The translations under genes were made by a program, and so were the position numbers. From NCBI RefSeq assembly GCF_027587175.1, contig NZ_JAPCID010000040.1:1-57110 (forward strand): a stretch of DNA of 57,110 bases, read 5' to 3'. Source of the stretch: Solirubrobacter deserti (GTDB taxonomy: Bacteria; Actinomycetota; Thermoleophilia; Solirubrobacterales; Solirubrobacteraceae). The notes under the pieces are model-generated. The model was not told the origin of the DNA and did not search any database. It saw only the letters and a list, made by a program, of their open reading frames with translations. This document shows positions 1-3,963 of the stretch, piece after piece. Within the stretch, counting starts at the first letter, position 1. Every line of letters begins with the position of its first letter.

Positions 1-288
1 GCCCCCGATCGCCTGCGCGACGGCGAAGACGCGGCCGCCGCCGAGCGCGCCGATCCGGTCGCCCGGGACGGCGTCCAGCAGCCCCACGGCCAGCTGGTCG
101 ACGTGGCCCGGCGCGACGATGTGGAATGCGTCCGCGCCGGCCACGATGCCCGGCGCGGCGTCCTTCGCACGCGGCGTCGTCAGCAGCGTGTAGCCCGGCC
201 CGCCGAGTGCGTCGACGGCGTCGTCCAGCGCGCCGCGGCCGAAGACGATGAGCCGTTCACCGTCCTGCCAGCGAAAGCTACGTGCCAA
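1..288 (-). CDS. Iron-containing alcohol dehydrogenase-like protein (maleylacetate reductase type), N-terminal part
   Basis: Partial: the 3' end lies beyond the left edge and about 96 codons are visible. A TTG start at 288 gives MARSFRWQDGERLIVFGRGA, and the gene overlaps the end of hmgA by 11 bp, so it is probably translationally coupled as the last visible gene of the tyrosine operon. The reading continues with a beta/alpha Rossmann-like pattern to ALGGGRVFAVAQAIGG, at the position of the GGGSxxDxAKA nucleotide-binding loop of iron-type alcohol dehydrogenases and maleylacetate reductases. The usual Asp and Lys of that loop read Ala and Gln here, so the activity is uncertain and a divergent homologue is possible. 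The family oxidises or reduces small alcohols or maleylacetate with NAD(P)H. The metal-binding half is not visible. Confidence 0.55.
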   Translation of the reverse strand, partial: MARSFRWQDGERLIVFGRGALDDAVDALGGPGYTLLTTPRAKDAAPGIVAGADAFHIVAPGHVDQLAVGLLDAVPGDRIGALGGGRVFAVAQAIGG

Positions 289-1459
289 CGGGGTCCTCGT
301 ACCAGGAGTACGCATAGCTCGGATCGTCCAGGTCGCGGGCGAGCGTCGTGAGCTTCAAGGGGCGGAACGTATCGCACATCACGGCGAGCTCGGACGTCTC
401 CTTCACGCCCAACGACTTCTCGACGGTGCCCGGCTGCGGGCCGTGCGGCAGGCCGCTCGGATGCAGCGTGAACGAGCCGATCTCGACGCCCTTGCGCGCG
501 GCGTAGTCGCCGTCGACGTAGTACATGACCTCTTCGCTCTGCACGTTGGAGTGGTGATAGGGCAGCGCGACCGCCATCGGGTCCCAGTCGAGCATGCGCG
601 GGCAGAACGAACAGATCACGAAGTTCGGGCCCTGGAAGGTCTGGTGCGCGGGCGGCGGCTGGTGCAGGCGGCCGGCCTTGGGCTCGAAGTCGTGGATGTT
701 GAACGTGTACGGGTAGACGTAGCCGTCCCAGCCGACCACGTCGAGCGGGTGGTAGTCGAGCACGTAGTCCTGGTAGCCGCCGCGGACGCGGACCTTCACG
801 TCGTGCTCGGCGCGGTCGCGGTGCGTGACCAGCTCCGCCGGGGGATGGAAGTCGCGCTGGGAGAACGGCGCGTGCTCGAGCAGCTGGCCGTAGCGGTTGC
901 GGTAGCGGTTCGGCGTCTCGATCTCGCCCGGGGTGTAGAAGGTCAGCCAGCGCTGGGGCTCGTCGAAGCGGAAGCGGTACGTCGTCCCGCGCGGGATCAC
1001 GACGTAGTCGTGCTTGCGGTAGGGCAGCGTCCCGAAGATGGTCTCCACGACGCCCGACCCCTCGTGGACGAAGATGACCTCGTCGCCCTCGCCGTCGCGG
1101 TAGAAGTAGTCGGCCTCGCGCTCGGGCACGCAGATCGCGATCTCGACGTCCCCGTTGTACTGCAGCACGCGCCGTCCCAGCACCGCGTCCCCGAAGGCCT
1201 CGGTGCCCATCGTGTGCGTGAGGCGGTGCACGTGCGTCTCGGGCACCCACTCCTCGAGCTCGATCGGCGTGAACTCCCCGACCTCCTTGACCCGGCAGGG
1301 CGAGAACAGGTGGTAGAGGATCGACTCGTTGCCGGAGAAGCCCTCGAAGCCCATGACCTCCTCGACGAGCAGCGGCGCGTTCCCGTTCGCCGACGAGTCG
1401 GGGTCGCGGAACTGGACGTGCCGCTTCGCGGGGACGCGGCCGAGTGACACGTAGCGCAT
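278..1459 (-). CDS. hmgA: Homogentisate 1,2-dioxygenase
   Basis: 393 aa. Cytoplasmic Fe(II) enzyme that opens the homogentisate ring to maleylacetoacetate, the second committed step of tyrosine degradation. The cupin core is visible: EVIFVHEGSGVVETIFGTLP, then PRGTTYRFRF. The metal site is seen near the C-terminus in PYHHSNVQSEEVMYYVDGD followed by HPSGLPHGPQPG, which carry the expected His/Glu/His ligands. The ATG at 1459 (MRYVSLGRVPAKRH) overlaps the serpin stop codon by one base (TGATG), so translation is coupled. An in-frame upstream extension to 1537 lies inside the serpin gene and has no family similarity. The length matches the shorter actinobacterial form of the family. Confidence 0.95.
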   Translation of the reverse strand: MRYVSLGRVPAKRHVQFRDPDSSANGNAPLLVEEVMGFEGFSGNESILYHLFSPCRVKEVGEFTPIELEEWVPETHVHRLTHTMGTEAFGDAVLGRRVLQYNGDVEIAICVPEREADYFYRDGEGDEVIFVHEGSGVVETIFGTLPYRKHDYVVIPRGTTYRFRFDEPQRWLTFYTPGEIETPNRYRNRYGQLLEHAPFSQRDFHPPAELVTHRDRAEHDVKVRVRGGYQDYVLDYHPLDVVGWDGYVYPYTFNIHDFEPKAGRLHQPPPAHQTFQGPNFVICSFCPRMLDWDPMAVALPYHHSNVQSEEVMYYVDGDYAARKGVEIGSFTLHPSGLPHGPQPGTVEKSLGVKETSELAVMCDTFRPLKLTTLARDLDDPSYAYSWYEDPVGT

Positions 1460-2325
1460 CAGTCTCTCCTCTGCACTGGGTTCACCACGCGCCCGGCGAA
1501 CAGGACCGTGCCGGTCGGCGCGTGCTCGATGGCCCACGTGAAGGGCCGGTCGAAGACGATGTGGAACTGCGGCTGGATGAAGGCGACGGCGCGCGCCATC
1601 ACCGCGGTGGTGGCCGCGGCGCGGGTGCCCTCCTCGTCGACGTCGACCCGCGCGCGCTGCAGGATCCGGCTGATCCCCTTCGCGCCCGGCCCTTCGATCA
1701 GCTCGTCCAGGTCGTGCCCGGTCTCGAAGCTCAAGCCGAGCACCTCGTTGACGTCGATCGAGCTCTCGACCGTGAACCGGGGCAGCTCAACTGTCCCGTG
1801 CCCGCGCGCCCAGTCCCGCTCGCCCGGCTCGCCGAGCGTCGCCACGAAGCGCAGGTCGTGCTCGGAGTAGGGCAGCCGGACGGCGCCGTCGGCGTACTCG
1901 AACGTGCCCTCGACGCTCATCATCGGCACGTCGCCCACGCCCTCGAACGGGGCCGGGCGCGTGTCCTCGAACGGGCGCTGCCACTTCGCGTCGAGGTACT
2001 CGGCGTCGGTGAGGACGAAGACCTCGTCCGGGTCGAGCGACTCGAGGATGCGCGGGATCATCCCGCGCGTGTGCTCGCTCGACCACGCGTTGATCGCTTC
2101 GAGGTCGAGCGGGCCGGTGTCGAGCCTGAGCTTCCGGCCCGGCCGGTAGTCCTCGTGCAGCCACGCCGCCTGGGCACTCACCACGCCCGGCACCTCGGGC
2201 GGCATCTCGAACCGCTCGAGAGCGCGCCGGGTCTCACCCGTCGCGCCCCCACGGATCACGCTCAGCGCACGGTGCAGGCCGTAGGGCGAGAAGACGACAT
2301 CACCGCTGAGCTGGTCCAGGAGCAT
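1459..2325 (-). CDS. Compact intracellular serpin (serine protease inhibitor family)
   Basis: 288 aa, against roughly 370-400 for a normal serpin. The N-terminus begins almost at the conserved FSPYGLHRALSVIRGGA segment, so the first helix is missing and the helix D-E region is short. Still present are INAWSSEHTRGMI, DAKWQRPF (breach tryptophan), VPMMSVEGTF, the hinge DEEGTRAAATTAV (about residues 230-242) and the signature FHIVFDRPFTW followed by GTVLFAGRVVNP. The Ala/Thr-rich hinge matches inhibitory serpins. Spacing compared with antithrombin puts P1 near Val247, within ARAVAF. There is no signal peptide, so it should act in the cytoplasm. It sits 3 bp after hppD and overlaps hmgA by 1 bp, an unexpected partner for tyrosine catabolism. 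The protease target is unknown. Confidence 0.88.
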   Translation of the reverse strand: MLLDQLSGDVVFSPYGLHRALSVIRGGATGETRRALERFEMPPEVPGVVSAQAAWLHEDYRPGRKLRLDTGPLDLEAINAWSSEHTRGMIPRILESLDPDEVFVLTDAEYLDAKWQRPFEDTRPAPFEGVGDVPMMSVEGTFEYADGAVRLPYSEHDLRFVATLGEPGERDWARGHGTVELPRFTVESSIDVNEVLGLSFETGHDLDELIEGPGAKGISRILQRARVDVDEEGTRAAATTAVMARAVAFIQPQFHIVFDRPFTWAIEHAPTGTVLFAGRVVNPVQRRD

Positions 2326-2328
2326 GTC

Positions 2329-3447
2329 CTACAGGTTGCCGCGCAGGGCCTGCTCGCGCTCGATGGCCTCGAACAGCGCCTTGAAGTTGCCGTCGCCGAA
2401 CCCACGCGCGCCGTGGCGCTCGATCACCTCGAGGAAGACGGTCGGGCGGTCGCCGATCGGCTTGGTGAAGATCTGCAGCAGGTAGCCCTCGTCGTCGCGG
2501 TCGACGAGGATGCCGAGCCGCTTGAGGTCCTCGAGGTCCTCGTTGATCTCGCCGATGCGCTCGGGCACGTCGTCGTAGTAGGTCTCCGGCGTGCGCAGGA
2601 ACTGGATGCCGCGCTCCTGCAACTGCTCGACGGTGCGCACGATGTCGCGCGTCGCGACCGCGATGTGCTGCGCGCCCGCGCCGCCGTAGTACTCCAGGTA
2701 CTCGTCGATCTGCGACTTGCGCTTGCCCTCGGCCGGCTCGTTGAGCGGGAACTTCACGCGCCCGTTGCCGTTGGTGACGACCTTCGACATCAGCGCGGAG
2801 TACTCGGTCGAGATGTCCTCGTCGGAGAAGTGCAGCATCTCGCGCATCCCGAAGACGTCCTCGTAGTACTTGACCCACTCGTCCATGTGGCCGAGCTCGA
2901 CGTTGCCGACGATGTGGTCGATCGCGAGCAGGCCCGTGTCGCCCGTGTCGATGTCCCGCGCCGCGAACCCGGGGTGGAAGGCGCCCTTGTACTGGGAGCG
3001 GTCGACGAACGTGTGGATGGTGTCGCCGTAGGTGGCGATCGACGCGCGGCGCAGCGTGCCGTGCTCGTCGCTCACATCACGCGGCTCCTCGACGCCACGC
3101 GCGCCGCGCGCGGTGGCCTCGCGGTAGGCGTGGTCGACGTCCGGCACGCCCAGCGCGATCACCTTCACGCCGTCGCCGTGGCGCGCGACGTGCTCGCCGA
3201 TCTCGTGGCCGGGCACCAGCGCGCCCGTCAGCACGATCCGGATCCGGCCCTGCTCGAGCACGTGTGACGCCCGGTCGCGAACGCCTGTCTCGAGCCCGGC
3301 GTACGCCACCTCCTTGAAGCCGAGCACCTTCGTCCAGAACGACGCGGCCTGCAGCGCGTTGCCGACGAAGAACTCGACGTGGTCGATGCCGTGCAGCGGC
3401 ATGAAGTCTTCGGTCTTGCTCGGAGCGACGATGGGCTGGGTCGACAT
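2329..3447 (-). CDS. hppD: 4-hydroxyphenylpyruvate dioxygenase
   Basis: 372 aa from the ATG at 3447 (MSTQPIVAPS). It converts 4-hydroxyphenylpyruvate to homogentisate with Fe(II) and O2. Two vicinal-oxygen-chelate halves are visible: GIDHVEFFVGN in the N-terminal domain, and in the C-terminal domain the ligands IDHIVGNVE (His), GAQHIAVATRDI (His) and FLEVIERHG (Glu). The closing helix GFGDGNFKALFEAIEREQ is typical. It is first in the operon hppD-serpin-hmgA-ADH and divergent from an Lrp/AsnC regulator that probably senses an aromatic amino acid or keto acid. An upstream in-frame ATG at 3513 would place the start inside the regulator and was rejected. Confidence 0.95.
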   Translation of the reverse strand: MSTQPIVAPSKTEDFMPLHGIDHVEFFVGNALQAASFWTKVLGFKEVAYAGLETGVRDRASHVLEQGRIRIVLTGALVPGHEIGEHVARHGDGVKVIALGVPDVDHAYREATARGARGVEEPRDVSDEHGTLRRASIATYGDTIHTFVDRSQYKGAFHPGFAARDIDTGDTGLLAIDHIVGNVELGHMDEWVKYYEDVFGMREMLHFSDEDISTEYSALMSKVVTNGNGRVKFPLNEPAEGKRKSQIDEYLEYYGGAGAQHIAVATRDIVRTVEQLQERGIQFLRTPETYYDDVPERIGEINEDLEDLKRLGILVDRDDEGYLLQIFTKPIGDRPTVFLEVIERHGARGFGDGNFKALFEAIEREQALRGNL

Positions 3448-3454
3448 GGGTGGA

Positions 3455-3483
3455 ATGTTCCGCCTCTCGTCCCGCACGCTCAA
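3455..3483 (-). promoter_or_regulatory. Probable promoter of the tyrosine catabolism operon
   Basis: Read on the minus strand, TTGAGC (3483-3478) and GAACAT (3460-3455) are separated by 17 bp. The predicted start point falls on or next to the hppD ATG at 3447, so the transcript may be leaderless. The region is the divergent gap shared with the Lrp/AsnC gene. Visual match only. Confidence 0.4.
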
Positions 3484-3522
3484 TCCCGATCCGTTGCGCG
3501 CATGTGGGACCATGGGCGCCTG

Positions 3523-3963
3523 ATGGACGACATCGACCGGCAGATCGTTGCGCTGCTGCGCCAGGACGCGCGGCGCTCGTTCCAGAGCATCGGGCTGCGC
3601 GTCTCGCTGTCCGCGCCGGCCGTCAAGCGCCGCGTCGACCGGCTCGAGGCCGACGGCGTGATCCGCGGCTACACCTCACGCGTGGACCCCGTCCGCTTCG
3701 GCTGGACCACCCACGCGATCGTCGCGCTGTTCTGCGAGGGACGGATGCCGGCGCACGAGGTGCGCGAGGCCGTCGAGCGCCACCCGGAGGTGGAGTCGGC
3801 CTACACCGTGGCGGGTGAGGCGAGCGCGGTCGTGCACGTGCGCGCGCGGGACACCGCGCACCTGGAGGAGACGCTGGAGCGCATCCGCGACCACCCGGGC
3901 GTGACCCGGACGCAGACGCAGATCGTGCTCAGCACGCTGTTCGAGCGCCCTTTTGAGGCCTAG
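3523..3963 (+). CDS. Lrp/AsnC family transcriptional regulator
   Basis: 146 aa from the ATG at 3523 (MDDIDRQIVALLRQDARRSF). The N-terminal winged helix-turn-helix contains GLRVSLSAPAVKRRVDRLEADGVI, followed by the alpha/beta RAM ligand-binding domain, with VESAYTVAGEASAVVHVRARD matching its core. An ATG at 3502 would add seven residues and cannot be excluded. Transcribed away from hppD with a gap of about 55-75 bp. By position it should be the amino-acid or keto-acid-responsive regulator of the tyrosine operon, possibly also autoregulatory; this is inference. Confidence 0.88.
   Translation: MDDIDRQIVALLRQDARRSFQSIGLRVSLSAPAVKRRVDRLEADGVIRGYTSRVDPVRFGWTTHAIVALFCEGRMPAHEVREAVERHPEVESAYTVAGEASAVVHVRARDTAHLEETLERIRDHPGVTRTQTQIVLSTLFERPFEA

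What the first reader, a model, noticed from the sequence alone, without database searches (positions are those of the whole stretch)
1459..2325. A serpin locked into a tyrosine-degradation operon
The sequence shows a serpin with an intact hinge and C-terminal signature, 3 bp after hppD and overlapping hmgA by one base. Serpins inhibit proteases, and a role inside aromatic catabolism is not known to me. It is about 90 residues short, lacks helix A and has no signal peptide, yet keeps an inhibitory-type Ala/Thr-rich hinge. It may protect HPPD or HGD from an intracellular protease, or be a new minimal serpin fold. P1 falls near Val247 by spacing with antithrombin.
Basis: partly seen in the sequence, partly recalled or inferred. 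Interest (0 to 1): 0.78.

Follow-up and report, generated by a model that had tools for sequence, protein, structure and literature searches.

The report
Trimmed serpin fixed in tyrosine operon
A soil bacterium carries, between two tyrosine-breakdown genes, a gene for an unusually small relative of the protease-trapping proteins called serpins; the relatives in its genus that were examined keep it in the same place, but its job there is untested.

Summary
A 288-aa serpin (PF00079, E 7e-42) lies 3 nt after hppD and shares one base with hmgA (TGATG). All 7 Solirubrobacter genomes held (6 distinct sequences) have hppD-serpin-hmgA. In the same taxonomic family outside the genus, 19 of 20 genomes with both enzymes have hppD directly before hmgA without a serpin, 8 as hppD-TGATG-hmgA. 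One insertion at the base of the genus split an existing operon, and the serpin was kept.

Against 28 full-length serpins of the class it lacks helix A and the stretches that hold helices D, E and G/H, while beta segments keep nearly full length. A hydrophobic N-terminus is seen in 20 of 28 of those and 0 of 6 of these. Hinge, R245 (P3) and V247 (P1) are invariant; P1'-P7' varies. dN/dS is 0.29-0.68, against 0.09-0.34 for its neighbours.

Best reading: a cytosolic, helix-stripped inhibitory serpin co-expressed with tyrosine catabolism, target unknown. A non-inhibitory role is not excluded: shutter residues are shifted, and AlphaFold on the single sequence failed. Filed as a new variant of a known kind.

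The parts
1459..2325 (-). short serpin gene (288 aa, no export signal)
   Evidence: PF00079 E 6.8e-42; intact orthologues in 7 of 7 genus genomes; no hydrophobic N-terminus
2329..3447 (-). hppD, 4-hydroxyphenylpyruvate dioxygenase (372 aa)
   Evidence: TIGR01263 444.7 bits, cut-off 277
278..1459 (-). hmgA, divergent homogentisate 1,2-dioxygenase (393 aa)
   Evidence: PF20510 and PF04209 above cut-off; TIGR01015 below its cut-off
3523..3963 (+). divergent Lrp/AsnC-type regulator, 75 nt from hppD; regulator of the operon by position only (inferred)
   Evidence: PF01037 and PF13404 (run on the longer ORF 3379-3963); match beside hppD in all seven genus genomes, in most loci cut by the locus end
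1564..1635 (-). codons for P17 (E231) to F254: hinge and reactive-centre loop
   Evidence: alignments
1585..1587 (-). codon of V247, putative P1; R245 (P3) is two codons before; both invariant in 6 distinct sequences
   Evidence: invariant columns
1466..1470 (-). AGGAG, Shine-Dalgarno-like site for hmgA inside the last serpin codons, 6 nt from the hmgA ATG
   Evidence: AGGAG at the same place in all 6 distinct sequences
1..288 (-). start of an iron-containing alcohol dehydrogenase-like gene next to the 3' end of hmgA (cut by the contig edge); not shown to belong to the operon
   Evidence: full copy L023:8011-9105 hits PF00465 and PF25137

Best explanation
The gene encodes a cytosolic serpin that has lost most outer helices but kept the beta-sheet core, hinge and reactive loop. 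It entered the hppD-hmgA operon once, in the ancestor of Solirubrobacter, and is translated between the two enzymes. I think it still works as a suicide inhibitor: a serine protease cleaves near V247-A/S248, the loop inserts into sheet A and the protease is trapped. Coupling to tyrosine breakdown would supply the inhibitor when the cell lives on amino acids from protein, when many proteases are being made, so that misplaced or stray proteases in the cytosol are neutralised. Shown: the gene, its place, its conservation, the loss of helix stretches, the conserved hinge, P3 and P1, no export signal. Inferred: inhibition, a Val-preferring (elastase- or subtilisin-type) target, one transcript, the link to growth on protein.
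For: 7 of 7 genus genomes carry it intact between the same two genes. Purifying selection: dN/dS 0.29-0.68 in 15 of 15 pairs. P15 G, P14 T, P12-P10 AAA, P8 T, P3 R and P1 V are invariant in 6 of 6 distinct sequences, although the proteins are only 58-82% identical. Strand s5A before the hinge (QRARVDVD) is invariant. The Trp194 equivalent is kept in 6 of 6 and in 28 of 28 full-length class serpins. TGATG and an AGGAG inside the serpin end are present in 6 of 6. A hydrophobic N-terminus is found in 0 of 6 short and 20 of 28 full-length serpins, on guessed starts for the latter. The genome has 18 S8 and 7 S1 family matches; 17 of 18 S8 genes have a start choice with a hydrophobic N-terminus, one (L134, 574 aa) has none (crude scan). 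PMC8233489 (passages) proposes that hub-type prokaryotic serpins do intracellular housekeeping against cytoplasmic proteolysis.
Against: The stretches of about five helices are missing and no structure supports that the rest can hold the metastable state (one search failed). Shutter positions differ from most class serpins: N49 equivalent D/E, S56 equivalent G, N186 equivalent D, H334 equivalent Q in 6 of 6; PMC8233489 takes breach and shutter departures in a Streptomyces clade as a hint of non-inhibitory function. P13 is R or T, where 18 of 28 class serpins have E. The serpin evolves faster than its neighbours, and the loop (9 of 17 positions invariant) is only a little more conserved than the whole (121 of 288). 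No target is known; the tie to growth on protein is reasoning only.
Confidence: 0.45

Rival explanations
1. Non-inhibitory serpin-fold protein: a binding partner, assembly aid or ligand carrier for HPPD or HGD, with the hinge retained by descent or for reasons of folding.
For: Fixed place between the two enzymes in 7 of 7; loss of helix stretches and shifted shutter residues; long stem branch (2.53); faster protein evolution.
Against: The hinge has stayed small-residue in 6 of 6 while the whole diverged to 58% identity, which non-inhibitory serpins often fail to do (recalled). In 19 of 20 serpin-less relatives the same enzyme pair is adjacent, so HPPD and HGD need no such partner there.
Confidence: 0.3
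2. Cytosolic guard of the two operon enzymes only: it protects HPPD or HGD from one defined intracellular protease.
For: Translated next to both enzymes in all members; no export signal.
Against: Same-family genomes with the adjacent enzyme pair manage without it; no protease among the neighbouring genes that I named by Pfam (not every ORF was scanned); no target identified.
Confidence: 0.13
3. Hitch-hiker: a gene inserted by chance and kept because losing it would disturb hmgA translation, with weak or no function of its own.
For: The AGGAG before hmgA now lies in the serpin end; dN/dS is roughly 1.5 to 4 times that of the neighbours for the same pairs.
Against: dN/dS is below 1 in 15 of 15 pairs, no stop or frameshift in 7 of 7, and hinge, P3 and P1 are conserved.
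Confidence: 0.12

Closest known systems
Inhibitory serpins (PF00079), e.g. conserpin, PAI-1, alpha-1-antitrypsin
   Same: Sheet strands, helix F stretch, hinge and loop, C-terminal part; the best profile match among solved structures is a PAI-1 chain, 4kds, E 2.6e-28. Q at the H334 and G at the S56 position also occur in PAI-1 (alignments).
   Different: About 90 residues shorter: the stretches of helices A, D, E and G/H are missing (element names recalled).
Full-length serpins of the same bacterial class (28 aligned)
   Same: Homologous core and hinge.
   Different: They have 38-52 residues from hC to s2A (here 21), 38-44 from s2A to hF (27), 44-62 from s2B to s2C (30; but 64 in G136 through a Pro/Ala/Thr-rich insert); 20 of 28 have a hydrophobic N-terminus; none has V in the P1 column.
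Hub-type intracellular prokaryotic serpins (PMC8233489, passages)
   Same: Proposed intracellular role; inhibitory-type hinge.
   Different: The passages I saw describe no trimmed scaffold and no metabolic operon; the word 'operon' does not occur in the paper's text.
Chloropin (PMC10090351, passages)
   Same: Bacterial inhibitory serpin that may act inside the cell.
   Different: Has a long helix D near which heparin and DNA bind; here the helix D stretch is absent.

Membership tests
Serpin superfamily by homology (PF00079) | Profile match over the curated cut-off | tested here: met
   144.4 bits against 27
Canonical serpin architecture | Three beta sheets with about 8-9 helices, about 330-380 residues (recalled) | tested here: not met
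   Beta segments near full length, but helix A, D, E and G/H stretches missing by segment length. So a homologue of serpins, not a canonical one; hence 'new variant'
Inhibitory serpin | P17-P8 hinge of small residues (E-x-G-T-x-A-A-A-x-T) | tested here: met
   6 of 6 distinct sequences, with P17 E in 5 and D in 1
Inhibitory serpin | Shutter and breach residues (N49, S53, S56, N186, W194, H334; recalled) | tested here: inconclusive
   S53 and W194 kept in 6 of 6; N49, S56, N186 and H334 changed in 6 of 6; of 28 full-length class serpins 6 also have Q at 334, 4 have D at 186 and 2 have G at 56
Inhibitory serpin | Covalent SDS-stable complex with a target protease; stressed-to-relaxed transition | not testable with these tools
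   needs protein
Inhibitory serpin | Exposed reactive loop in the native fold | tested here: inconclusive
   AlphaFold2 on the single sequence failed, pLDDT 34.6
hppD-hmgA operon of this bacterial family | hppD directly followed by hmgA | tested here: met
   19 of 20 genomes outside the genus with both genes; in the genus the serpin lies between

The most novel reading that the evidence does not exclude
A natural inhibitory serpin reduced to its beta-sheet core, working in the cytosol as part of a catabolic operon. Helices A, D, E, G and H would then be dispensable for protease trapping, and a serpin would be tied to aromatic catabolism, for which my paper searches listed no precedent. A second linkage may exist: in another class of the phylum, 2 genomes of one family carry a full-length, exported-type serpin downstream of hppD.
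Probability: 0.33. Interest if true: 0.78.

Novelty: new variant of a known kind. Interest (0 to 1): 0.62.

Why it matters
[quoted passage not shown] Here a genus keeps one serpin in one metabolic context, with a natural before-and-after comparison (the operon with and without it), which makes its role testable by one deletion. If it inhibits, it shows which parts of the serpin scaffold are needed for the conformational trap, a basic question in serpin folding and serpin disease.

Tried and rejected
AlphaFold2 on the single sequence gave pLDDT 34.6 and pTM 0.22; I drew nothing from it and made no fold search. The genome-contig scan found only that record. The viral-contig scan found no relative.

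Considered and rejected: a pseudogene or chopped full-length serpin (intact frames and matching segment losses in 7 of 7 genomes); a start set too late (in the window a stop lies two codons before the ATG; in G138 the frame is open further up, across hppD, so there the start rests on position); a recent gain by one strain (all genus members have it and the six distinct sequences form one branch, 100/100); presence in the whole bacterial family from the start (only 15 of 232 genomes of the order have a serpin at E 1e-5; the 8 outside the genus are full-length or nearly so, with no hppD or hmgA in their flanks).

The second hppD-serpin neighbourhood was followed up. Among 125 loci outside the genus (119 with a serpin match at E 1e-8; about 100 genomes by my own count from the tables; flanks from nothing at contig ends to about 9 kb) hppD was found in 5 loci of 2 genomes, G577 and G797, and hmgA in none. 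Serpin matches not fetched: G316, G363 and the second match of G298, G507. In G577 the serpin starts 51 nt (GTG) or 60 nt (ATG) after hppD on the same strand; in G797 an opposite-strand pyridoxamine-oxidase-like gene lies between. G649, of the same genus as G577, has no match. It may be chance; I computed no probability.

Limits. dN/dS is a simple Nei-Gojobori count on 6 distinct sequences. Partial hppD matches of G009, G013, G059 and G060 and the second hmgA match of G085 were left out of the gap count; those four genomes have no hmgA match. Full-length starts are rough guesses and one row (L021) is cut. Loops were compared by alignment column. Phylum loci with frames of 330 residues or fewer, and those without a match to the queries used, were dropped from the tree, whose root is a midpoint. 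The protease N-terminus scan is a crude hydrophobicity test on up to three start choices.

Paper searches: serpin with homogentisate (30 papers, 20 listed), bacterial or prokaryotic serpin with helix A or intracellular (11,590, 20 listed), Solirubrobacter with serpin (3), serpin with helix D, deletion, smallest or minimal (118, 25 listed), bacterial serpin with operon (5), serpin with 4-hydroxyphenylpyruvate dioxygenase and operon (1), truncated serpin and the like (3), smallest serpin with helices (13). No listed title or abstract start describes this arrangement; unlisted papers were not seen. Passages of three papers were read.

Full report
The thing itself. The ORF at 2325..1459 on the minus strand encodes 288 residues and matches the Pfam serpin model at E 6.8e-42; phmmer against solved structures ranks conserpin and PAI-1 first. 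It is the only serpin found in a genome of 97.3% completeness (two pieces of one frame). The gene before it is hppD (TIGR01263); the gene after it is a divergent hmgA that passes both Pfam HgmA models but not the NCBI equivalog cut-off. A divergent Lrp/AsnC-type regulator starts 75 nt from the hppD start. Further genes named by Pfam are a fatty acid desaturase, a luciferase-like monooxygenase, an EamA transporter and a LysR regulator on one side and an iron-containing alcohol dehydrogenase on the other; not every ORF was scanned.

Conservation of place. A relative is present in all 7 genomes of the genus, one of them the same species with an identical serpin; the public copy is Solirubrobacter sp. 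CPCC 204708. In all seven, tblastn shows regulator, hppD, serpin and hmgA in this order. The distance from the last hppD codon to the hmgA ATG is 868-1026 nt in the genus. Of 146 genomes of the family, 36 have hppD and 29 hmgA at the threshold used. Outside the genus 20 have full-length matches to both on one contig and strand; in 19 hmgA follows hppD after 2-114 nt (stop codon counted), in one (G002) it lies upstream. In 8 the figure is 2 nt, that is hppD-TGATG-hmgA, as the printed junctions show. In the genus the hppD end is RGNL-TAG, then 2-6 nt, then the serpin ATG; the serpin ends TGATG into hmgA with AGGAG in its last codons, in 6 of 6 distinct sequences. This is a clean insertion into an existing operon with the coupling re-made. 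One exception to note: one hmgA match of the 20 (G120) is cut by its contig end.

Outside the genus. In the order, 15 of 232 genomes have a serpin: the 7 and 8 others, which are full-length or nearly so. In the class draw it is 32 of 399, in the phylum draw 70 of 396. None of the 29 loci L063-L091 has hppD or hmgA in its flanks.

Architecture. Against 28 full-length class serpins the segment lengths are (short; full-length median and range): hC to s2A 21 (26 in G136) against 44.5 (38-52); s2A to hF 27 against 43 (38-44); hF to end of s3A 37 against 39 (37-41); s3A to s3C 20 (10 in G137) against 26 (24-26); s3C to s2B 16 against 20 (20-37); s2B to s2C 30 (29 in G137, 64 in G136) against 47 (44-62); s2C to P15 52-57 against 56.5 (53-63); P15 to s4B 27 (28 in G136) against 27 (23-30); s4B to s5B 15 against 15 (4-15). 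So the largest losses are in the three helix stretches, with smaller losses elsewhere. Before the s6B motif there are 11-18 residues, against 44-212 in 27 of 28 (one row is cut). The names of the missing helices use the recalled order of serpin elements. In G136 the G/H stretch is filled by a Pro/Ala/Thr-rich run. The shared losses place the trimming before the genus radiated. The N-terminus begins at s6B/helix B; a hydrophobic stretch near the N-terminus is found in 0 of 6 short and 20 of 28 full-length serpins (starts of the latter guessed).

Selection and the loop. Serpin pairs are 58-82% identical with dN/dS 0.29-0.68; hppD pairs 82-96% and 0.09-0.34; hmgA pairs 87-95% and 0.13-0.28. So the serpin is constrained, but less than its neighbours. 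Invariant columns include G233, T234, A236-A238, T240, V242, R245 and V247, while 1 of 7 positions from P1' on is invariant. By alignment column, V at P1 is in 6 of 6 and in 0 of 28 class serpins; R at P3 is in 6 of 6 and in 4 of 28. Over the whole protein 121 of 288 positions are invariant, so the loop's conservation (9 of 17 from P17 to P1) is moderate. Arg245 is as conserved as Val247 and could be the true P1 if the loop is read two residues shorter.

Against inhibition. Positions equivalent to N49, S56, N186 and H334 carry D/E, G, D and Q in 6 of 6. G56 and Q334 also appear in the PAI-1 alignments, so they are compatible with inhibition; the acidic pair is less easily explained. P13 is R or T. 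The stem of the clade is long (2.53 changes per column).

Tree. The six distinct short serpins form one branch with support 100/100; their place among the 55 other rows is not resolved (midpoint root).

Possible targets. The genome has 18 S8 and 7 S1 matches. By a crude scan 17 of 18 S8 genes have a start that gives a hydrophobic N-terminus; the exception is a 574-residue subtilase in L134. This is a lead only.

A second neighbourhood. In another class of the phylum G577 has a full-length lipoprotein-type serpin 51-60 nt after hppD on the same strand, and G797 has its relative (56% identical) after hppD with an opposite-strand gene between. Relatives of that serpin, e.g. in G642 and G688, are not beside hppD within the regions read. 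It is of a different branch and exported type, so this is at most a parallel, and possibly chance.

Literature. PMC8233489 (passages) says that most prokaryotic serpins have N-terminal transport peptides, that their physiological role in many prokaryotes is enigmatic, and suggests intracellular housekeeping for hub-type ones. PMC10090351 (passages) describes chloropin with a longer helix D. My searches listed no paper on a serpin in tyrosine catabolism.

Verdict. Real, conserved, and unusual in place and build; mechanism unproven. New variant of a known kind.

Noticed in passing
L144:8770-11202 (G577) and L198:603-3580 (G797): Full-length exported-type serpin downstream of hppD in 2 genomes of another class; in G797 an opposite-strand pyridoxamine-oxidase-like gene lies between.
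   Followed up: partly
L134:799-2523: Subtilase of 574 aa in the window's own genome with no apparent export signal and a Gly/Pro/Ile-rich tail; the other 17 S8 matches look exported by a crude scan.
   Followed up: partly
L009:1486-2505 (G136): The genus member with the longest serpin (339 aa) carries a Pro/Ala/Thr-rich run where helices G/H would be.
   Followed up: partly
G559:C1:402547-403828 (L156, L158): Serpin matched in two pieces that lie in different open frames; looks broken by a frameshift or an assembly error.
   Followed up: no
window 1-288: Iron-containing alcohol dehydrogenase-like gene beside the end of hmgA; the contig edge cuts it, and its last residues in the window differ from the otherwise near-identical record L023.
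   Followed up: partly
   Followed up: no
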